In this document: positions 8,950 through 48,877 of the stretch, one piece after another
Layout of the letters: each line of letters starts with the position of its first letter
Numbering within the stretch: position 1 is the stretch's first letter
Assembly (NCBI GenBank): GCA_019310785.1
Contig: JAFDDR010000002.1
Coordinates: 1-49,124 of the forward strand
Source: Deltaproteobacteria bacterium
GTDB taxonomy: Bacteria > Desulfobacterota > DSM-4660 > Desulfatiglandales > Desulfatiglandaceae
Length of the DNA: 49,124 bases
Reading direction: 5' to 3'
Made by a program: the position numbers and the translations under genes
Notes under the pieces: generated by a model
What the model was told of the DNA's origin: nothing
Seen by the model: only the letters and a program-made list of their open reading frames with translations
The model's database searches: none

Positions 8950-10020
8950 TTACTCCCTGTATTCCTCCATCACAAATACAGGATCATAAACCAAAACCCA
9001 CCGGCCATCCCACATTCTTGCGAACACAAGTTTGATGTCAGTGCCAAACACGGTCAGAAAATACTTTGAAGTCTCATACTCCCATTCTACGGAAATATCG
9101 TCTATTGATACCGTTACTGCCCCCCACGGACACTCAGCATCTTCACCCTCTTTAAAAGTCATACTCAACCCGGACGCTTCTATTAAGGTTGTACCAGGCA
9201 GTGACCACATCCAATTACACTCGGAAGGATCGTGGACTATCGGATCAGGGTCAGGATCAATAGGGGGATTGTAAGGCGGCCAGAATGGGGCAAACGGGTC
9301 ATCATTAGGGTCATTATCTACAGGGGGATCATCCTCTCCGGTAGAAACGAAATTGCAATTACCTGTATGAGTAGGGGTTATTCCATTCGGTAGGGGGTTG
9401 CCGCTCGAATCCCAGCTTGCGGTAGCATACCATGCCTTATAGGCATTCGTGTCTATAGTCACCTCAAAATTGGAAGCTGCCAAGTTAGGGGCGCTTCGGC
9501 CATCATAGAGCACCTTTACATAGAGCCATTCACCGTCTGATGAGGGACTGTAATCCTTGACTATTGGTATGGTTCCGGAATGATTCCTGATACGTATATC
9601 ATTATCTCTAAATTGCTGAAGTGAGCCGCCAGAAAAACCTGCAGCAGATAGCCAGGGCAAGCCGTAAAAGTAGTCTTCTGATGCACTGGTACTGGTGCTA
9701 TATCCAGCTACATTGCACTGTGGCGGAAACCCCAACCGTACAACCACGCCGATCATCTGGTTCTGGGGACAGAACACGGCAAGGCTTACTCTATCCTTTA
9801 CGGCAGGCGGGATATAAAACCTGAAAAGCCACGTATTTTGTCTGCCACCCTGAAAACCCAGTTTCGTAGTTACGTTATCCGGATTATGCGTCATCTTGTA
9901 GCCACCCATCGGGTAAACAGACTTATATTGCGAAGCTGATTCCACTGCGCCGGAAACTGAAACACCCAGGAACAACACCGCCATAAAAATGACGGTTATC
10001 ATAATCGCTATTTTTTTCAT
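8950..10020 (-). CDS. exported protein near the tail-tip region
   Basis: Signal peptide MKKIAIMITVIFMAVLFLGVSVSGA; 356 aa. Confidence 0.6.
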   Translation of the reverse strand: MKKIAIMITVIFMAVLFLGVSVSGAVESASQYKSVYPMGGYKMTHNPDNVTTKLGFQGGRQNTWLFRFYIPPAVKDRVSLAVFCPQNQMIGVVVRLGFPPQCNVAGYSTSTSASEDYFYGLPWLSAAGFSGGSLQQFRDNDIRIRNHSGTIPIVKDYSPSSDGEWLYVKVLYDGRSAPNLAASNFEVTIDTNAYKAWYATASWDSSGNPLPNGITPTHTGNCNFVSTGEDDPPVDNDPNDDPFAPFWPPYNPPIDPDPDPIVHDPSECNWMWSLPGTTLIEASGLSMTFKEGEDAECPWGAVTVSIDDISVEWEYETSKYFLTVFGTDIKLVFARMWDGRWVLVYDPVFVMEEYRE

Positions 10021-10694: not shown

Positions 10695-11174
10695 CTATTC
10701 AAAATCCATATTCTTAATCAACGCCAAAACAGCCTTATAGAGCTTCTTTAAACTGCTTTTCTGTGCTGTTGATAAAGCGCTGAACGTACTGTCAACATGC
10801 GTGTCAATCTGCGCGTAGGTCATGGCTGATATCTGAGCAAGCTTGTCTTGTGCCGTTGTACGATCTGTGGCAACACCCTCAATAGCTACCGTAGCCGTGC
10901 TGGACTCTGCCTCTGCAATAGCGTTTAAAACTTTTAATTTGGACGGCTTGCCCTGGATTGTGACGTAGTTATACCGGTAGAAAGTCTCTGCCTCCATCGG
11001 TCCATCACCATCCGGGTCCTTCTGGATTTCCTGGATGTTGTAATTATAATAGTAACTCTCCGGTGCGATTTTCTGAATAGTCGGCGGTGACGATTTGGAC
11101 TCCGCTGTTTCAGCAAATGTTGATGCCGGGCAGAGTAGGCAGATAAACGCTGTGATTATGAGCAGTTTTTTCAT
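10695..11174 (-). CDS. exported hypothetical protein
   Basis: Signal peptide MKKLLIITAFICLLCPASTFA. Confidence 0.55.
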   Translation of the reverse strand: MKKLLIITAFICLLCPASTFAETAESKSSPPTIQKIAPESYYYNYNIQEIQKDPDGDGPMEAETFYRYNYVTIQGKPSKLKVLNAIAEAESSTATVAIEGVATDRTTAQDKLAQISAMTYAQIDTHVDSTFSALSTAQKSSLKKLYKAVLALIKNMDFE

Positions 11175-11187
11175 TTTAGTATCTCCT

Positions 11188-11508
11188 TTAGCTAAAAATA
11201 TAATACCTGTTTATCTTCTTAATGGTTGCTGAAAATGGGATCTCATTCCCGTATTTTTCGATTTGCTTTATTAGTACGTCAGACCCCGTAAAAACAATCT
11301 TCACCTCGTGTTCAATCTTAATTTGCAGAGTCAAATATTTACCCGATTTGTTTTTAGAATAATTACTGTCACCAATACGATACCCGACAATCTCAATTTC
11401 CTGATTCAAAATGGTGTCCAGCTTTACTTTATCGCCATCTAAAACAGGCGGCTCTGTGGCAAAATCCGAAAAGCGTTTCTTCCGTTTTTCCGCCAATTCT
11501 ATCGTCAT
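11188..11508 (-). CDS. RT-coupled small protein, candidate DGR accessory factor
   Basis: ATGA overlap with the RT stop (11505-11508); beta-rich sequence YLTLQIKIEHEVKIVFTGSDVLIKQIEKYGNEIPFSATIKKINRYYIFS. Confidence 0.6.
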   Translation of the reverse strand: MTIELAEKRKKRFSDFATEPPVLDGDKVKLDTILNQEIEIVGYRIGDSNYSKNKSGKYLTLQIKIEHEVKIVFTGSDVLIKQIEKYGNEIPFSATIKKINRYYIFS

Positions 11509-12650
11509 GTGAATCTCTTTTCTAATGGGTTACTGAACCCGCCTCTCTCACACACATCCGCCAGTATTCCCTTGATTTTTTCGTCAACATGTCTGTGCCA
11601 CAGATTGAGGCAATTAGCATGCCTCATCCATCCGTGATAACTCATAATCGTACTGGCAATGGATACAGGATATTTTTCGTCGTATTTACCCCTCCGAATA
11701 GTGCGCATCTTCCGTTTGAATTCAAATGCGGTGGATTTCCGCAATAGCGTGTATCCCGGAAAAAACCGATACCCGAGAAAATCAATCCCGCGGGCAGCCA
11801 CAGGGTACACCTGCCAGTCAGATTTCAGAGTTAAGCTTAATCTGTCGATCAGGTAGGTCTCGATCTCTCTGCGGATCTCATGTAGTTTACTTTTGTCCGC
11901 TCCCAGAATCACCATATCGTCGCAGTATCGGATATAATATCGGCATCCCAGGCTTTCCTTAATCCAGTGGTCCAGACCGGTAAGATAGAGATTGCCAAAA
12001 TACTGGCTCAGGTAATTACCGATGGGTACGCCCTTATCTGTAGAATCTATAATCCGTCCCAGCAGCCATAACACATCCGGGTCTTTGATCTTTCGGGCCA
12101 GGATGCGCTTTAATATGCCGTGGTCAAGAGACGGATAGAACTTCTTCACGTCCATCTTGAGACAATAGCGGGTTCCCTCCGGATCGATCCTGAGGGCGTG
12201 CTTTATACACTTTACGCCCTTATGGATGCCGCGCCCCTTTAGACACGCCAGGGTGTCCGGAATTAGCCAGGGCACCCAGATAGGCTCGCAAACCTGCACA
12301 ATGCAATGGTGAATGATCCGATCCGGAAAGTAAGGCAGTTTATGAATCACCCGATCTTTCCGCCCCTTTTTCACAAACACCTTATAATGTGAGTTTTTGA
12401 ATATTTTATTCTTCAACATCGTCTGTATCCGTCCGAGATACATCCCCGGGTCCGCGTCAACCATGCGGACCTCATGATAATGGCTTTTGCCCTTTCGGGC
12501 GTTCTCATGTGCCATGCGGACATTGTCCATATCGTATATTTTGTGATACAAGTTTCCGTATCGTTTCATAAGCTGCTTATTTCGCCCTGGAGCGTTCGAA
12601 CCCTCCGGCCTACCAGCACCAAAAACGGGCCTTGCTTTGTGTTTTGCCAA
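11505..12650 (-). CDS. DGR reverse transcriptase
   Basis: KMDVKKFYPSLDH, GVPIGNYLSQYFGNLYL, YIRYCDDMVIL (YxDD), GIDFLGYRF motifs; located immediately downstream of the TR. Confidence 0.93.
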   Translation of the reverse strand: MAKHKARPVFGAGRPEGSNAPGRNKQLMKRYGNLYHKIYDMDNVRMAHENARKGKSHYHEVRMVDADPGMYLGRIQTMLKNKIFKNSHYKVFVKKGRKDRVIHKLPYFPDRIIHHCIVQVCEPIWVPWLIPDTLACLKGRGIHKGVKCIKHALRIDPEGTRYCLKMDVKKFYPSLDHGILKRILARKIKDPDVLWLLGRIIDSTDKGVPIGNYLSQYFGNLYLTGLDHWIKESLGCRYYIRYCDDMVILGADKSKLHEIRREIETYLIDRLSLTLKSDWQVYPVAARGIDFLGYRFFPGYTLLRKSTAFEFKRKMRTIRRGKYDEKYPVSIASTIMSYHGWMRHANCLNLWHRHVDEKIKGILADVCERGGFSNPLEKRFT

Positions 12651-12694
12651 GAGGCATGGTTTCAGACTCCAATGAGCTTTTTTTGCTTATCCAT

Positions 12695-12818
12695 AAGCTG
12701 AGCTGCCCGCCGATATTCACATTGTCATTCGACGACGTGTTATTCGCATTGACGTAAAACGCTCCGGTGTTCGAGCTGTTATTCGCATTACTGCCGAATT
12801 TAACCACGCGCCAGCCGG
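12695..12818 (-). repeat. DGR template repeat (TR)
   Basis: 124 bp aligned without gaps to VR (offset 174); all 24 differences at TR adenines on the coding strand. Confidence 0.95.
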
Positions 12819-12864
12819 GGAGCCTGAAACCAGTAAAAAGTTGCGTGCGTTCTGCGATTTGCGA

Positions 12865-14865
12865 TTAGAAGCAGAGCCGCCCGCCGAAATGCACAACGTC
12901 ATCCGACGACGCGGCATGCGCAACGACGCAAAACGCTCCGGCGTACGAGCCGTAAGCCGCACTACCGCCGAAGCTAACCACGCGCCAGCCGGTAGACTGA
13001 TAATAGTAATCAGTAATATATGTAGAGCTTGACCCGCCAACCGCAGAGGGTAGGAATCCTCCTTTTGTTTGTTCTAAGGTTGTTTGATAACCATCCCCGT
13101 TATGCAGTGTAATCCCGCTGCCGCCGGTATCTAATAATTGACTGTACGCTGTAGTTGTGTCATCTGCAAAATCTGTCTCCGTGTTGGAGACATACGGGAT
13201 ATTATTGTTGATATTGATCCCATCAATCCACTGATAAATATTGCCATAGAAGTTTTCAATACCACGGTAGGTCATATAGGCATCTTCTGCACCGACATCG
13301 TCGGCATCGCCCGAATATTCGGCATTATTGGTTCCGTTTCCATCCCCGTTGGACAATCCTCCCTCAGAAATATAACTACCGTTTACCCATGTCCCGCTTG
13401 ATAGTTGTGTCCGACCTTCGCCGATGACATCCTGGCTATAAAACGACGCATACTCAACCAGATAAAGTAACTGAATGGCACTGTTTAAATAGAAGTCGAG
13501 CTGTCTCCAGCCAGCCCCACGGTTAAGGGCGATGGCCCTGAACTCAGCCCGTGTCTCATCGGTAATTGGGTTTTTTCCACTGACACTGCCAAGTATATCA
13601 TTAACTGTATCAATAGTGCCGCCGCTCCATCCCGTAGCCGCTGTATTACCGTGGTCAATATAAGCACTTGCGGAATCATCCCAGCCGACACCCTCATACG
13701 CCCCGATATACCTGTAATCTACCCAGGCCCCGTCTTTGTAGAACGCGGGATGTGGTTCGTAGCCCGGTAGTGCAACGCCTGATATGCTCCAAGAGTGGAC
13801 ATTTGTGGCCGCAACGTATGAATATTTATAGTAAAACTTCGGGATTTCGACCATAACCTGGCCGTCTGTACCGTCTAAGACGGAGGCAGTAGAGCAGTCC
13901 TCTTTATCCGTGCTGTCAGTGGCACAGAGGTAATATTGCACTACTCCGGCATCGCTGAGAATGCACCGTCGCATAGCCGCTTGGACAGGTAAGCAAACAT
14001 TGCCTGGACTTGATGCCGCTGCTATACCTGCCAAGGCTCCTGTACGAGTCAGTGTGGGGCTTGAATTATCCTCATCCCACGAAACACCATATGCCAACAG
14101 CCCCGCCATAGCGTAGCCAAGCCCTTCAGGGGTTACCGCCCTGTTTTCATCGGTGAACGCAGCCACTTCATCATTCGTGGCTATCTCCATCACGCCTGTA
14201 GCCGATGTCGTGGCAGATTGTTTTAATGCAGTGAACGCAGCCGCAGCCGTGCTCGCACCTGTGCCCCCATCAGCTATAGGGACATCTGTCCCGTCAGCTC
14301 GATATATATATTTTGCCCCGATAGTAACGGCTGTAGGGATATTTGCGCCCCACACAGGATCACTCCCGGGGCCGCCGCCGACAAGGATTTCAGTAGTCGC
14401 GCCGGCATCCCAGACTGTACCAGCCCCCACTAAAGCCGTTCCGTCAGCCCTCGTATAATCCAGGCATCTCCAATCCCCTGAAGCATATTCATAGAAGGCC
14501 GCAAGATCCCCGGCGGCAGTTGTGATGTTAGCCCCTGTCGGTAAAACCAAATCAGCCGAATGGGTGAGCTGAAGGATCGCGTCAAACTGAAGGACAACCA
14601 TCGTTCCAATGCCCTTCGAGGTAATCGTATTAATGGTCGTGGTCCCGGTAATATCAAAGAAATTTCCATCCCCCAGGGTCATAGCGTTTGCGCTTGCTAC
14701 GTCTGAGCCTTGATGAGTTTTGAGGGTCTTTCCGACGGTGACATCACCAGGAAATACGCCCTCGGACTTGCCGGGATTATTAAACGGGTTGCCCTGTTCG
14801 GCGTGGGCGAAGCCGGCGGTAATCAGTCCGGCCAGTATGAACAGTATTAAGGATATTCGTTTCAT
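12865..14865 (-). CDS. DGR variable protein: tail-fibre-like protein with N-terminal signal peptide and C-terminal VR
   Basis: Start MKRISLILFILAGLITAGFAHA; IADGGTGASTAAAAFTALKQ tail-fibre motif; C-terminus GWRVVSFGGSAAYGSYAGAFCVVAHAASSDDVVHFGGRLCF contains the VR. Confidence 0.88.
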   Translation of the reverse strand: MKRISLILFILAGLITAGFAHAEQGNPFNNPGKSEGVFPGDVTVGKTLKTHQGSDVASANAMTLGDGNFFDITGTTTINTITSKGIGTMVVLQFDAILQLTHSADLVLPTGANITTAAGDLAAFYEYASGDWRCLDYTRADGTALVGAGTVWDAGATTEILVGGGPGSDPVWGANIPTAVTIGAKYIYRADGTDVPIADGGTGASTAAAAFTALKQSATTSATGVMEIATNDEVAAFTDENRAVTPEGLGYAMAGLLAYGVSWDEDNSSPTLTRTGALAGIAAASSPGNVCLPVQAAMRRCILSDAGVVQYYLCATDSTDKEDCSTASVLDGTDGQVMVEIPKFYYKYSYVAATNVHSWSISGVALPGYEPHPAFYKDGAWVDYRYIGAYEGVGWDDSASAYIDHGNTAATGWSGGTIDTVNDILGSVSGKNPITDETRAEFRAIALNRGAGWRQLDFYLNSAIQLLYLVEYASFYSQDVIGEGRTQLSSGTWVNGSYISEGGLSNGDGNGTNNAEYSGDADDVGAEDAYMTYRGIENFYGNIYQWIDGININNNIPYVSNTETDFADDTTTAYSQLLDTGGSGITLHNGDGYQTTLEQTKGGFLPSAVGGSSSTYITDYYYQSTGWRVVSFGGSAAYGSYAGAFCVVAHAASSDDVVHFGGRLCF
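12869..12992 (-). repeat. DGR variable repeat (VR)
   Basis: 124 bp homologous to TR; ends just before the stop codon of the target gene. Confidence 0.95.
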
Positions 14866-14926: not shown

Positions 14927-15310
14927 TTACTCGTAATATGTAATGGAGACCTTGGCCGCATAGGCTGATATAACAGACATCTGCGTTTCGCCTTCAATCC
15001 ATCGACAGATGGGGTTCAGTTCGCTTCCGGTCCCGTTATTTGTATCACCCGCGGGGATCGCAGCCGTCCCGGTCCCGATCCTGACCCAGATATCAGCGGT
15101 GGACGCGAAAATGACATACCGGGATCCGGTTGGAATGGTTATGGTCTTGGCAGCGCTGGCCGTCAACAGATATGTGTTCACATACCCCTGGGGAATGGCA
15201 AAGGTCTGATCCCCCTTGTAGTTCCGGAAGATCTTGAATGAATCAAGCGCCAAAGCGTTTGAAGCGATAAGCATAATTGCCGCTGTGATAATAATAAGTG
15301 TTTTTTTCAT
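14927..15310 (-). CDS. small exported protein upstream of the DGR target
   Basis: Signal peptide MKKTLIIITAAIMLIASNALA. Confidence 0.6.
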   Translation of the reverse strand: MKKTLIIITAAIMLIASNALALDSFKIFRNYKGDQTFAIPQGYVNTYLLTASAAKTITIPTGSRYVIFASTADIWVRIGTGTAAIPAGDTNNGTGSELNPICRWIEGETQMSVISAYAAKVSITYYE

Positions 15311-15400: not shown

Positions 15401-15476
15401 CATTTAATGAATCAAGCGCCAAAGCGTTTGAAGCGAAAAGCATGATTGCCGCTGTGATGATTAGTGTTTTTTTCAT
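15390..15476 (-). pseudogene. truncated duplicate of the 14927-15310 leader (MKKTLIITAAIMLFASNALALDSLNERK*)
   Basis: Near-identical to 15237-15323 at nucleotide level; terminates within the hairpin repeat. Confidence 0.75.
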
Positions 15477-34081: not shown

Positions 34082-36076
34082 TCAACTCATAAACTTCGAT
34101 CGCGCAACCTTGATTGATCCTCTGCCTCCAGCCTTCTTGCCGTCCTTGCCGCCGCTATCCAACCCCAAGTGCTTGAGATAGATATCTGCCATGGCCATGT
34201 GATATCCCGAGATATCCCACGCATGGTTATCGCGACTCTCGATCACCTCCCATATCCCTTTCTCGTCATTCCTGACCTCCGAGCACATCTGCCTCGCCCA
34301 ATCGATGGTAGTGTCCTTATGCAGGTGCCATGCCCCCGGGTCTATGGGAGATATCTGAAGGCGATTTACCAGCATATCCTTATAATGATTTACGTTAAGC
34401 CCGTATAGCCTGATATCGCGGCCTTTCTTCCGGTGTTTTTCCCCGGGTTTATCCCACCGCCAGGCCAGGGCCATGCGGTTGTGGCCTCTGATCCCCATCA
34501 CGCGCGGGTTATGTTTCCGGCACCAGTCATAGACCTCTCCTGTCCGGTGCCCGCCCGTATCGATAAAGACCAGTTGTACGGGGTATTCAGCCCCGTCCAT
34601 ATCCCTGTAGACATCCGAAAACAGTACCTGCTCCAAGGCCCTGAAATCCTTGGAATGCACTGAGGGGACAAATCCCTCGCGCACCTGCCAGCTCTCCAGG
34701 TCGGGCCAGGGGCCCCAGGCCCGGATCTCGTACCAGAATCCGTCATCCTGCGTATCCGCAACCGCGGTCAGTCCCACGAGCGGTTCTGACGGCACTACCC
34801 CTCGGTCCCGATCGTCCCGCAAAGCCAAAATGTCATCTTCTTTTCGTGCCCGGATCTTTGGCCTGTAGGCCTCGGCCTTATGGGCATTGATAAAGTCCTG
34901 TAGCTTTGCCGGATCCTTCCGGCCCCGCAAAAAAGCCGCGGCAACCTTGGACAAAGACATAAAAGAGCTTATCCATGAGGGGACCTGGACGCCGATTTTT
35001 CGGGGGCGCTCTTTTTCGAGATATTTGAACATCTCTATGCCGCCCTCGACCTTTTCTCCTTCATCCCGCTGTCGCGTGCGCCATTGGCCCCCACGAACCG
35101 CCTTATTCCGCTGGTTGTCATCCCATTGGGCCTTACAGATCGCGCATTCATACCAGGCAAGGCCCAGGGCTTCCATCCGCTCCGGATCCGGATGGACCTC
35201 CTTCTCCTCGTCATTGACCTCCTTATCCCACTTGATCTGATCAAACGTCATCAAGTGATGCTTATGGCATCCGGGGCATTTTACCCAATAATCAAACACC
35301 ACCTGGGCCTCGGGCGGTACCTTGCCGGGGATCCCCAGCAATGCCTTCGAGATGGGGGCGCTCTCGAGGGTCGGCTTTGATATCTTGATAATCTTGTGAT
35401 CATGCTGATATGTGATGGTCCGTTTTTCACCCTGAGAGATGGGGTCTGTTTCTCTTTTGCTGGGTTGATCGGGATATAGATCGGTCTCATCGAAGATCAT
35501 GACCTTGATGGGCCGGTTGGCCATCCGCGCGGGAGATCCGGCCCACCCGAGGTAGATCGGCATATGCAGCAGTTTTATGCGCAGCGACGATTTGTCATCC
35601 TCGTACCCGGTCAGATAACTCCTGAGGCGCTGCGAACTCTCGATCATCGGCAGTATGCGGTCCTTGCAGTTCTCTGCCGCGGTCGGACGGTCAGGATAAT
35701 TGTACTGCACCGGGCCCGGACTCCGGTCGATGCACCATCCGACAAAATTATGAACGCATTCCGACTTCCCGACCTGATTGGCCGCGCATATGATCACCGT
35801 GCGCACATAAGGGAGGGCCATGGCATCCATGATCCCGGCCAGATATGGCGTCACCTCATTGCGCCAGGGACCCTCAAGCTTGCTTAGAGTCACAATCCGG
35901 TGCCGCTCGGCCCACTTGCTCGGTCGGATCGGCCGGCGCGTGCGCATGATCTTTTTTTCCGCCCGCGAAAACGAGCCCACATACTCGAGGCGGCCTTTCT
36001 CTTTCAGTTTCTTGAGGAGAACGGGCGACAACCATTTGGAGGGGTTATTAACGACTATTGAAGATTGAATATCCAT
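34082..36076 (-). CDS. terminase large subunit (GpA family)
   Basis: RPIRPSKWAERHRI, PYVRTVIICAANQVGKSECVHNFVGWCIDRSPGPVQYNYPD. Confidence 0.9.
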   Translation of the reverse strand: MDIQSSIVVNNPSKWLSPVLLKKLKEKGRLEYVGSFSRAEKKIMRTRRPIRPSKWAERHRIVTLSKLEGPWRNEVTPYLAGIMDAMALPYVRTVIICAANQVGKSECVHNFVGWCIDRSPGPVQYNYPDRPTAAENCKDRILPMIESSQRLRSYLTGYEDDKSSLRIKLLHMPIYLGWAGSPARMANRPIKVMIFDETDLYPDQPSKRETDPISQGEKRTITYQHDHKIIKISKPTLESAPISKALLGIPGKVPPEAQVVFDYWVKCPGCHKHHLMTFDQIKWDKEVNDEEKEVHPDPERMEALGLAWYECAICKAQWDDNQRNKAVRGGQWRTRQRDEGEKVEGGIEMFKYLEKERPRKIGVQVPSWISSFMSLSKVAAAFLRGRKDPAKLQDFINAHKAEAYRPKIRARKEDDILALRDDRDRGVVPSEPLVGLTAVADTQDDGFWYEIRAWGPWPDLESWQVREGFVPSVHSKDFRALEQVLFSDVYRDMDGAEYPVQLVFIDTGGHRTGEVYDWCRKHNPRVMGIRGHNRMALAWRWDKPGEKHRKKGRDIRLYGLNVNHYKDMLVNRLQISPIDPGAWHLHKDTTIDWARQMCSEVRNDEKGIWEVIESRDNHAWDISGYHMAMADIYLKHLGLDSGGKDGKKAGGRGSIKVARSKFMS

Positions 36077-36096
36077 TATGTTCTCACGCAAGGCCG

Positions 36097-45624: not shown

Positions 45625-45999
45625 TTACGTGAGCAGGCGCAGCCCCTTGTAAAATGTGACACCTCTTCTACGTTTTTCGAAGCGACCAGTCATGAGCTTG
45701 TTAAATTTTTTCCAGGATGGGACCCAGCTTCTTGATATATTTGTCGTGAACCATTCACGAAATGCAACATATAAACCCCATGTCCGAGTCTGCCATGCAG
45801 GATCGATAAGACAATTTTGATCAATGAAATCTGCGAGCAGGTCGTCGTCCGTGATATATCCTCGTTTAAGAATCCGCTCGTTCATCCGCGCTTTTATTCT
45901 CATGCCACAATCATTACAGATAAGCATAAAACCATCGTGGCACGATTCAGGAATGCGATATTTTTTCCCTTCTCGTTTCTTACAGATCCCGCAAAGCAT
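45625..45999 (-). CDS. stand-alone paralogue of the helicase C-terminal domain with N-terminal zinc ribbon
   Basis: DDDLLADFIDQNCLID...GLYVAFREWFTTNISRSWVPSWKKFNKLMTGRFEKRRRGVTFYKGLRLLT aligns with the C-terminus of 46013-47620. Confidence 0.7.
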   Translation of the reverse strand: MLCGICKKREGKKYRIPESCHDGFMLICNDCGMRIKARMNERILKRGYITDDDLLADFIDQNCLIDPAWQTRTWGLYVAFREWFTTNISRSWVPSWKKFNKLMTGRFEKRRRGVTFYKGLRLLT

Positions 46000-46012: not shown

Positions 46013-47620
46013 CTATGTCAACAGGCGCAGCCCCTTGTAAAAATAAACCCCTCTTTTGTACTTCTCAAACCGATCTTTCATTAAATTTCCAAATTTCTTC
46101 TGTGACATGGAACTCTTTTTAGAGACATTCTCAGAAAACCATTCCTTAAACGCATCATACAGACCGGACGCCGGCGCTTCGGCCTCCGAATCGACATGGC
46201 AGCATTGATCTAAGAAATCGCCCAACAGATCTTCATCCCGCTTATATTCGGCAGTGGCATCGATGATCACCTGTGGAGGAGCAAGACCCATCTTCTGCCA
46301 TTGCAGGCACCCGCGCACCAACCAAGCCAAAATCCCAGGGGCCTCTTCCATAAGCTTATCAGGTAGATCATTGTCCGCCCGCAGCTCATTGTCCGCTTGC
46401 GGCGCTCGATCGACAAAACTGAAAGGGAAAGGGATCAAATGCACCCGCTGCCAGAAGGCGAAATCATTAGCAGGGGCATGGGGTTTGTGATTGGTCAATA
46501 AGACGAGAGTGTGTGTGGGTAAAAAGTAGGTCTCATATCGATCATGGGGCGCCCGGCCTACCAGGCTGTCACTGCCGGACAGCCACTTGACCCGGGAAGG
46601 AGAGAACCGGCGGCCCTCATCTGCCTCGGATCCGAACGCGATCCGGAGGCCGCGCAGGGCCATGATATCCGGGCTGGGTCCGGAAGAGTTCTTAACCCGG
46701 CCCTGGTCCAGGAGCATCTCCGACTGGATCGGTGCCGCCAGGGGCCCCAAAACCTTGGAGATTGTTTCCACGATCGTGGTCTTCCCATTCCGTCCCTGAC
46801 CCCACATGATCGGGAGGATATTTTCTTTGGTGAGCCCGGTGCAGGCATATCCCAAAAGACGGTTGACGTAGGCGACCAGATCCTTTGTTTGCCGGATCTC
46901 CTCATCTGTTTCGGCCTTGGCCCCCCCGAATATCTGATAAAGAGTCTCCTCCCAAATGGGCGCCGGCGCATCGATACCCTGGTATTCGACCGGCGAGGCC
47001 TTACAAATCATATCCTGCGGTTTCCCGGGGCGCATCTCCCCGGTCTTGAGATCGATGACCCCGTTCTCACACCCCAACACCCAGGGATCCTGATCCAGCT
47101 CATCACCTATAATATCAAGACTGTGCTTCAGGTTGACCGCCGAGAACTTGAGACAATTCATTCTCCCATTCTCCGTCCGCAACCTTCCAACCCGTTTATA
47201 AATATCCTCCTGGATCTCCTTCAGGGATCCGGCCCGTTTGGTATCCTTTTTCTGCATGGCCCAATCGATCTCTTTGACCAGATCCTGGGCATCCTGCAGG
47301 TACCTCTGCGCCACATTTTCCACCGATGCCACGGCTCGCTGACGGATATCCCGGTCCCAATGATGCCCAGTCCAGGACATCCACTCCCCGCTGCTCTGAT
47401 TCAATAGAAATTGCCCATCATGAAGCGCCGAATACAGCATCCCATCCCCTAACTGATTGGCATAAAGACAATCCCGGACAAACCGGGAATCAACCTCTCC
47501 ATTTACTCCCGCCCGGGTTTCCGCTTGCTTTTTCTCGGCCCGTTGTTTAAACTCCTCCTCAACACGTTTCCGGACCATCTCCTCAACTGACTTTTCATCC
47601 ATAAACCAATCCCAATCCAC
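46013..47620 (-). CDS. phage/plasmid primase-helicase (P4/D5 family, SF3)
   Basis: MWGQGRNGKTTIVETISKVLG Walker A; VLLTNHKPHAPANDFAFWQRVHLIPFPFSF; EEAPGILAWLVRGCLQW. Confidence 0.9.
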   Translation of the reverse strand: MDWDWFMDEKSVEEMVRKRVEEEFKQRAEKKQAETRAGVNGEVDSRFVRDCLYANQLGDGMLYSALHDGQFLLNQSSGEWMSWTGHHWDRDIRQRAVASVENVAQRYLQDAQDLVKEIDWAMQKKDTKRAGSLKEIQEDIYKRVGRLRTENGRMNCLKFSAVNLKHSLDIIGDELDQDPWVLGCENGVIDLKTGEMRPGKPQDMICKASPVEYQGIDAPAPIWEETLYQIFGGAKAETDEEIRQTKDLVAYVNRLLGYACTGLTKENILPIMWGQGRNGKTTIVETISKVLGPLAAPIQSEMLLDQGRVKNSSGPSPDIMALRGLRIAFGSEADEGRRFSPSRVKWLSGSDSLVGRAPHDRYETYFLPTHTLVLLTNHKPHAPANDFAFWQRVHLIPFPFSFVDRAPQADNELRADNDLPDKLMEEAPGILAWLVRGCLQWQKMGLAPPQVIIDATAEYKRDEDLLGDFLDQCCHVDSEAEAPASGLYDAFKEWFSENVSKKSSMSQKKFGNLMKDRFEKYKRGVYFYKGLRLLT

Positions 47621-47824: not shown

Positions 47825-48877
47825 TTATTGAATCCCTTCTTCCACCTTACCGGTCTGATCGGTCCGATCTTGATTTTCAACGCTATCTAAAATGTCCACT
47901 GCTTGTTGAATTGCCGTTGGAAACATATGGGCATAGATGTCGGTTGTGGTGACCCGTTCGTGGCCCAAATATGCCTGAACCGCCGGCAGAGGTGCATTTG
48001 ATGTTAAGAGACTTGAAGCGCCTAAATGCCGCAATGCATGTAAAGTGAATCGCTGCACTTTCGCTTTTTTACATAAGCGTCGCATCATATGGTCCAGAAA
48101 ATCGGTATCGAATTGAAAAACTCGGGGATCTGATTTGTCGCGTTTCTGATATCGAGAATATAAGACCCTGCGAAGAGTTTTAGTCATCGCCTTAGGCTTC
48201 GAAGTCAACGCGCCATCCTTACGTTTCCTGGTCCAGGCAATAAGCGATGAGGACCCAAAATTAATATCCCGGTCCCACAATAGACGCTGTGCCTCAATTC
48301 TTCTTAAGCCTGCGTGAAATATGGTTTCCAAGAAATCAACCTCATCAATAGAGGCAACCAACTTAACCACCGTATAATCTTGAATCGGTGGGATGTATCT
48401 CACTGTAAGATCCTCACCTATTTTATAAATGTCATTGGCAGGATTAAAAAGCACAGCCTGTCTCCCAAAATGCCAGTTAAACATCGCGCGAATATCCCGG
48501 AGATCCCGATTATGTGTTGATTTTCCCGAATCGATTCGTGTATCCAGATACGATTCAATATCTTCTTTGGTCACTTTATCGACCGGCTTATCTCCAATGT
48601 CGGAAAGAAGACTTGTTAATACGAAATACTTTTGCCGTACCGTATTAGTCGCCATCCTGCGTTTTTTGCAATATTCGAGATACTCGAGGATTATCTCTTC
48701 TAAGCAAGCGGAGGGGATGGCCCCTGTTTGAGCTGGAGCATTTACCCAGCTCCGCTTTTCCGCCTCCGCAAGGATCGCCTCCCTTTGGGTGGCAAACCCC
48801 TCTTTTTTGTACCTTTGTTTTTGGCGTTCGAATTTGTACTTCCATCTTTTTGTTTTTGGATCCTGCCATACGCTCAT
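47825..48877 (-). CDS. int: tyrosine recombinase integrase
   Basis: FHAGLRRIEAQRL, LHALRHLGASSLL, YLGHERVTTTDIYAH motifs; adjacent to the tRNA fragment. Confidence 0.92.
   Translation of the reverse strand: MSVWQDPKTKRWKYKFERQKQRYKKEGFATQREAILAEAEKRSWVNAPAQTGAIPSACLEEIILEYLEYCKKRRMATNTVRQKYFVLTSLLSDIGDKPVDKVTKEDIESYLDTRIDSGKSTHNRDLRDIRAMFNWHFGRQAVLFNPANDIYKIGEDLTVRYIPPIQDYTVVKLVASIDEVDFLETIFHAGLRRIEAQRLLWDRDINFGSSSLIAWTRKRKDGALTSKPKAMTKTLRRVLYSRYQKRDKSDPRVFQFDTDFLDHMMRRLCKKAKVQRFTLHALRHLGASSLLTSNAPLPAVQAYLGHERVTTTDIYAHMFPTAIQQAVDILDSVENQDRTDQTGKVEEGIQ

What the first reader, a model, noticed from the sequence alone, without database searches (positions are those of the whole stretch)
11505..14865. 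Complete diversity-generating retroelement with textbook adenine-specific TR/VR divergence
Aligning 12695-12818 (TR) with 12869-12992 (VR) without gaps gives 124 bp and 24 mismatches. Every mismatch is at a T in the plus-strand TR, i.e. an A on the coding strand; no C, G or T of the coding-strand TR differs. By my count 24 of 33 template adenines are changed (13 A->G, 6 A->T, 5 A->C). The VR ends at the stop codon of a tail-fibre-like gene, and an RT with YCDD and IGNYLSQ motifs lies downstream of the TR. This is the established DGR signature.
Basis: partly seen in the sequence, partly recalled or inferred. Interest (0 to 1): 0.93.

Follow-up and report, generated by a model that had tools for sequence, protein, structure and literature searches.

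The report
Phage diversity-generating retroelement with OB-like accessory
A prophage carries a complete, textbook gene-diversifying cassette that rewrites the tip of its tail-fibre-like protein at template adenines; it is a new example of a well-known system, and its unusual points are a conserved small protein coupled to the reverse transcriptase in place of the usual helper (Avd) and an RNA stem that closes over the template.

Summary
TR 12695-12818 and VR 12869-12992 (minus strand) differ at 24 of 124 positions, all at template adenines (chance 1.5e-18). The reading is also correct. The RT's best solved relative by sequence is the Bordetella DGR RT, and it falls inside the DGR clade. The variable domain's only significant fold match is the Thermus DGR variable protein. 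Near-identical relatives differ almost only in VR at template-A sites. The element lies in the tail module of a siphophage-like prophage contig.

The cassette has no recognisable Avd. Instead, a 106-aa protein predicted to be OB-like overlaps the RT stop by 4 nt. Homologues sit beside DGR RTs in bacterial phages and archaeal viruses and are fused to the RT in hankyphage, but many relatives lack it, so it is optional. The TR-RT spacer is a covarying RNA that matches Rfam RT-17 just under its cut-off. A 14-bp stem whose 5' arm abuts the TR brackets the template and covaries across 47 loci (z = -12.8). BPP-1-type IMH and the post-VR hairpin are not evident. This is a new member of a known kind; I could not check whether the accessory protein or stem is already named in papers not held here.

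The parts
12865..14865 (-). DGR target gene, 666 aa, tail-fibre-like (phrog_5302), Sec-signal-like N-terminus, C-terminal C-type-lectin-like variable domain
   Evidence: phrog_5302 tail protein E 1.7e-91; model pLDDT 84.7, only significant PDB fold match TaqVP 5vf4 E 3e-8; ATG 14865 with GGAGGT upstream
12869..12992 (-). Variable repeat (VR), codons 625-666, 20 variable codons
12695..12818 (-). Template repeat (TR), 33 adenines, 9 AAY codons in the target frame
   Evidence: unique in viral contigs
12819..12832 (-). P1 5' arm TGGTTTCAGGCTCC, abuts TR 5' end
12657..12670 (-). P1 3' arm GGAGTCTGAAACCA, 24 nt beyond TR 3' end
12645..12656 (-). P2 hairpin TGCC-TCTT-GGCA directly after P1 3' arm
12573..12661 (-). 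Spacer RNA, match to Rfam RT-17 (38.4 bits, gathering 40.4, E 5.5e-6); model R1 hit 12558-12672 (83.4 bits)
11505..12569 (-). DGR reverse transcriptase (YCDD, IGNYLSQ); ORF opens at TTG 12650, probable start ATG 12569
11188..11508 (-). RT-coupled 106-aa accessory protein, predicted OB-like barrel, ATG overlaps RT stop

Best explanation
This is a diversity-generating retroelement in the tail module of a prophage. The TR is transcribed as part of an RNA in which a 14-bp stem (P1) closes over the template and the downstream spacer (P2, P3; RT-17-like) docks the reverse transcriptase. The RT copies the TR into cDNA with random bases opposite adenines, and the cDNA replaces the VR at the 3' end of the tail-fibre-like gene. 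That gives up to about 10^18 variants of the lectin-like tip, which probably binds the host surface. The 106-aa protein overlapping the RT gene most likely works with the RT-RNA-cDNA complex, in the place Avd takes in BPP-1, but it is dispensable in some relatives. Shown here: the A-only TR/VR divergence, RT kinship, the variable-domain fold match, covariation of the RNA, linkage of the small protein to DGR RTs, and VR turnover in relatives. Inferred: cDNA mechanism, host-binding role, function of the small protein, present activity of this copy.
For: A-specific TR/VR divergence, p 1.5e-18. RT best PDB match is the BPP-1 DGR RT, 150.7 bits versus 59.5 for the next best, a group II intron RT; DGR clade at 99% SH-aLRT. 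Target domain matches TaqVP fold, E 3e-8, and lies in a phage tail protein family. Most RT relatives carry VR-TR-RT in the same order with A-biased mismatches. Near-identical relatives: L005/L006 differ at 19 A-sites and 2 other sites of 106 VR bases, 0 of 106 TR bases, 8 of 5927 elsewhere; L027/L031 10 A-sites, 0 other VR sites, 1 of 3576 elsewhere; both pairs carry the small protein and no Avd was found in them. Spacer RNA covariation 0.755 versus 0.282 shuffled, 0/500; Rfam RT-17. TR-closing stem: own flanks pair at -18.1 versus -12.2 kcal/mol with foreign flanks, z -12.8.
Against: No Avd recognised in the cassette; no hairpin signal after the VR and mutated A positions run to within 5 nt of the VR end, so no separate IMH is visible. 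Two to four non-A VR differences occur in some relative pairs. This exact VR could not be compared with a sibling genome. The small protein is absent from about half the RTs in the tree (some of these are contig ends) and has no confident fold match.
Confidence: 0.93

Rival explanations
1. A DGR that has stopped working: VR was last rewritten in the past and the cassette is now a fossil in a prophage.
For: No sibling genome shows this VR changing; prophage contig of a binned genome; no recognised Avd.
Against: RT ORF intact with catalytic YCDD, TR and VR alike except at A, VR free of stops, RNA stems intact; relatives of the same design are active.
Confidence: 0.12
2. Two diverged tandem repeats or an assembly chimera, not a retroelement.
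For: The two copies are only 174 bp apart.
Against: All 24 mismatches at A of one copy (p 1.5e-18); DGR RT beside it; dozens of relatives with the same layout and other sequences.
Confidence: 0.005
3. The 106-aa protein is an unrelated phage gene that happens to follow the RT (for example a tail-fibre assembly factor) and plays no part in diversification.
For: Absent from many related cassettes; two RT-less loci keep TR and the gene or a remnant (L091, L067); no functional data.
Against: Overlap or near-overlap with RT in most loci, in-frame fusion to RT in hankyphage p00 and in Prevotella L050, 14 of 15 loci found with the protein alone lie beside an RT, and among phage records the homologues inspected lie beside RTs, with most of the 27 Bacteroides-type hits annotated over an RT.
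Confidence: 0.3

Closest known systems
Bordetella phage BPP-1 DGR (mtd-avd-TR-brt)
   Same: Phage tail-fibre-like target with VR at the 3' end, TR next to the RT, A-specific mutagenesis, related RT, structured spacer RNA between TR and RT (Rfam Phage_DGR)
   Different: No Avd between VR and TR; a different small protein after the RT; spacer RNA is of RT-17 type rather than Phage_DGR; IMH and post-VR stem-loop not evident
Hankyphage p00 DGR (BK010646) and ANMV-1 archaeal virus DGR (KP703175)
   Same: Share the RT-linked small protein: separate gene after RT in ANMV-1, fused to RT in p00
   Different: p00 spacer RNA is Rfam RT-3; RT only distantly related. In the papers read, the DGR accessory ORF was identified by Avd-like pI and size (PMC6199706, PMC4372165); its identity with this protein was not checked
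Rfam RT-17 RNA (RF03020)
   Same: Window spacer 12573-12661 matches at E 5.5e-6; seven relatives pass the cut-off
   Different: The match starts inside the 3' end of P1, so the TR-bracketing P1 5' arm lies outside it
TaqVP, Thermus aquaticus DGR variable protein (5vf4)
   Same: Only significant fold match of the variable domain
   Different: 15% sequence identity; here the target is a phage protein with a Sec-like signal peptide

Membership tests
Diversity-generating retroelement | TR/VR pair with substitutions confined to template adenines | tested here: met
   24/24 mismatches at A
Diversity-generating retroelement | RT of the DGR clade ([IVL]GxxxSQ motif, YxDD) | tested here: met
Diversity-generating retroelement | VR in the ligand-binding C-terminal part of a target with C-type-lectin-like fold | tested here: met
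Diversity-generating retroelement | Mutagenic retrohoming activity | tested here: inconclusive
   Shown by sequence comparison for relatives, not for this copy
BPP-1-type (Avd-dependent) DGR | avd gene beside TR | tested here: not met
   Phmmer/HMM with BPP-1 and L003 Avd: hits only in BPP-1, L003 and weakly in L053 and L119; PF05635 none in virus records, but that model also misses BPP-1 Avd
BPP-1-type (Avd-dependent) DGR | IMH plus hairpin/cruciform just after VR | tested here: not met
   DNA folding of the 57 nt around the VR end gives z 0.06; no invariant GC-rich 3' block
Rfam RT-17 RNA | Score at or above the gathering cut-off of 40.4 bits | tested here: inconclusive
   38.4 bits in the window, 41-53 bits in seven relatives
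Group II intron, retron or defence RT | RT closer to those classes than to DGR RTs | tested here: not met
   Weaker matches, all NCBIfam hits below cut-off; tree split 99%
phrog_19665 (small RT-linked protein) | Profile match | tested here: inconclusive
   18 of 25 aligned homologues match, best E 8e-34; the window member itself does not

The most novel reading that the evidence does not exclude
A large branch of phage and archaeal-virus DGRs has replaced Avd by a small OB-like protein coupled or fused to the RT, acting on a template RNA whose TR is sealed by a covarying closing stem that sets the ends of cDNA synthesis.
Probability: 0.35. Interest if true: 0.6.

Novelty: new member of a known kind. 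Interest (0 to 1): 0.4.

Why it matters
As a DGR it adds one more tail-fibre diversifier to a well-surveyed class. The wider gain is a concrete, testable picture of DGRs without a recognised Avd: a conserved RT-linked small protein shared by bacterial phages and archaeal viruses and sometimes fused to the RT; a link between the Rfam RT-17 RNA and DGR template RNAs; and a TR-closing stem that gives a simple hypothesis for how the copied segment is delimited. Such compact cassettes could also be useful as targeted mutagenesis tools in laboratory strains.

Tried and rejected
Second VR for this TR elsewhere in the genome bin: none with up to 3 mismatches outside template A positions. Sibling phage with the same TR: none in viral contigs. 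Foldseek of the small protein: no hit under 0.001, only marginal matches, some to OB domains (RuvBL, RPA, HIN), so the OB label rests on topology alone. Whole-RNA folding energy of the TR region is not unusual (z -0.54); the case for the stem rests on covariation. At first I took the spacer RNA to be absent from Rfam (gathering threshold), but a sensitive search found RT-17 just under the cut-off, so it is not a new RNA family. A strict Avd-replacement reading was weakened by many relatives lacking the small protein. Wu et al. 2018 (NAR), Handa et al. 2018, 2021 and 2025, Naorem et al. 2017 and Weinberg et al. 2017 are not held, so whether the small protein is one of the accessory genes named there, or the stem part of the BPP-1 structure, is open.

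Full report
Check of the observation. On the minus strand 12695-12818 (TR) and 12869-12992 (VR) align without gaps over 124 bp with 24 mismatches, every one at an adenine of the TR; 24 of 33 adenines differ (13 A>G, 6 A>T, 5 A>C). The repeat finder gives the same borders. The chance of hitting only adenines is 1.5e-18. VR covers codons 625-666 of the 666-aa gene 12865-14865; 20 codons can vary, 19 differ from the TR version, and about 10^18.5 proteins are possible; 9 of the variable codons are AAT/AAC, which cannot become stops when A is randomised.

Where it lies. The window equals the whole of contig C324 of the bin G000 and the IMG/VR record 3300033153_011881. Phage genes include an integrase (47825-48877), terminase (34082-36091), portal, protease, major head protein and tape measure, so this is a siphophage-like prophage or phage contig; no terminal repeat was found. 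The DGR sits at the end of the tail module.

The RT. Pfam RVT_1 and phrog_1423 match. By sequence the best solved chain is 8ub7 (E 6e-43, 150.7 bits), whose aligned sequence is that of BPP-1 Brt; the next is a group II intron RT at 59.5 bits. NCBIfam group II, retron and defence RT models score far below their cut-offs. In a maximum-likelihood tree (quick search) the RT lies in the DGR set, which is split from group II and other RTs with 99% SH-aLRT support, next to L092.

The target. The protein matches phrog_5302, a tail protein. A model of residues 258-666 built with 28 sequences (pLDDT 84.7, pTM 0.90; last residues weak) has only three significant PDB matches, all chains of TaqVP, the DGR variable protein of Thermus aquaticus (E 3e-8). 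The gene starts with a good Shine-Dalgarno and a Sec-signal-like N-terminus; by a crude rule 10 of 43 related targets have one. Whether the adhesin is exported is unknown.

Relatives and activity. Most loci fetched with the RT have VR, TR and RT in the same order with A-biased mismatches. Pairs of nearly identical contigs show what the element does: L005 and L006 differ at 19 template-A sites and 2 other sites in the 106-base VR, at none of 106 TR bases and at 8 of 5927 other bases; L027 and L031 at 10 A-sites, no other VR site and 1 of 3576 other bases; L045 and L046 at 20 A-sites and no other VR site, with 37 of 8201 elsewhere. This is population evidence for retrohoming in this group, not for this copy, whose TR has no second occurrence in the collection.

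The small protein after the RT. ORF 11188-11508 begins inside the RT stop (ATGA). Homologues directly follow the RT in many loci, including ANMV-1 and vir525, viruses of archaea. In hankyphage p00 and in Prevotella L050 the domain lies in the RT reading frame. Searching with this protein alone gave 15 loci, 14 with an RT within about 2 kb and one cut too short to tell. Among 394 other genomes of the phylum only one weak match appeared. The AlphaFold model (pLDDT 86.5) has strand-strand-strand-helix-strand-strand topology as in OB barrels, but no confident PDB match. Pfam and PDB profile searches gave nothing convincing; phrog_19665, of unknown function, matches 18 of 25 homologues. No Avd was found in these cassettes. 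Since many related cassettes lack the protein, it is best seen as an optional RT partner; a helper role at cDNA level is inference. Earlier papers reported a small Avd-sized ORF near the RT in hankyphage and ANMV-1 (PMC6199706, PMC4372165); from memory, Wu et al. 2018 named further accessory genes, and that paper is not held.

The RNA. A 14-bp stem brackets the TR: 5' arm 12819-12832, ending exactly at the TR, 3' arm 12657-12670. In 47 loci with dissimilar flanks, own flanks pair far better than swapped ones (-18.1 versus -12.2 kcal/mol, z -12.8; 20 of 47 have their own flank as best partner). In 34 loci with a clear stem, a small hairpin, mostly NNCC-YCTT-GGNN, follows the 3' arm in 24, against 3.9 expected. 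The spacer alignment of 34 loci shows strong covariation (96.7% of cells paired versus 73.6% shuffled; score 0.755 versus 0.282, 0/500; sliding partners destroys it). A covariance model finds it before the RT in many loci not used to build it and only weakly in archaeal viruses; it is not found in BPP-1, p00 or the Avd-type loci L003 and L053. Rfam knows the spacer as RT-17: seven relatives pass, the window is 2 bits short; the BPP-1 spacer is Phage_DGR and hankyphage is RT-3. The RT-17 match does not include the 5' arm of P1. From my memory of the BPP-1 literature, RNA on both sides of TR is needed for cDNA synthesis, so P1 may be the counterpart of something already seen there.

Differences from the textbook layout. 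No recognised Avd; no hairpin signal after the VR; mutated A positions run to within 5 nt of the VR end. None of these features is required in all DGRs (established knowledge of the class), so membership in the DGR class stands, while membership in the BPP-1 subtype does not.

Verdict. The RT-linked OB-like protein and the TR-closing stem are the parts that a specialist might follow up.

Noticed in passing
G000 contig C339 (L173:1488-4393, L003): A second DGR at a contig end of the same bin: target with a caspase-like N-terminal part and an FGE/SUMF1-like C-terminus (by eye), then an Avd-like gene (124 aa), then the start of an RT; no TR found on the contig. The bin has 5.8% estimated contamination.
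   Followed up: partly
window 12865-14865, 14927-15310, 10695-11174, 8950-10020: Several tail-region genes of this phage, the DGR target among them, begin with Sec-signal-like peptides; similar N-termini occur in 10 of 43 related targets by a crude rule.
   Followed up: partly
window 15234-15292 and 15403-15461: A 59-bp direct repeat, 93% identical, carries the signal-peptide coding start of gene 14927-15310, as if this leader had been duplicated.
   Followed up: no
L091:9259-9676 and L067:9434-9771: Cassettes with TR and the small accessory gene (truncated in L067) but no RT between them, as if the RT had been deleted.
   Followed up: partly
L066:9229-9315: Spacer-type RNA directly after the VR gene although no TR/VR pair was detected in this locus.
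   Followed up: no
window 45625-45999 and 46013-47620: The 124-aa ORF resembles the C-terminal part of the neighbouring primase (both end in ...FYKGLRLLT), a likely partial duplication.
   Followed up: no
L162, L163: In these loci the small protein precedes the RT instead of following it.
   Followed up: no
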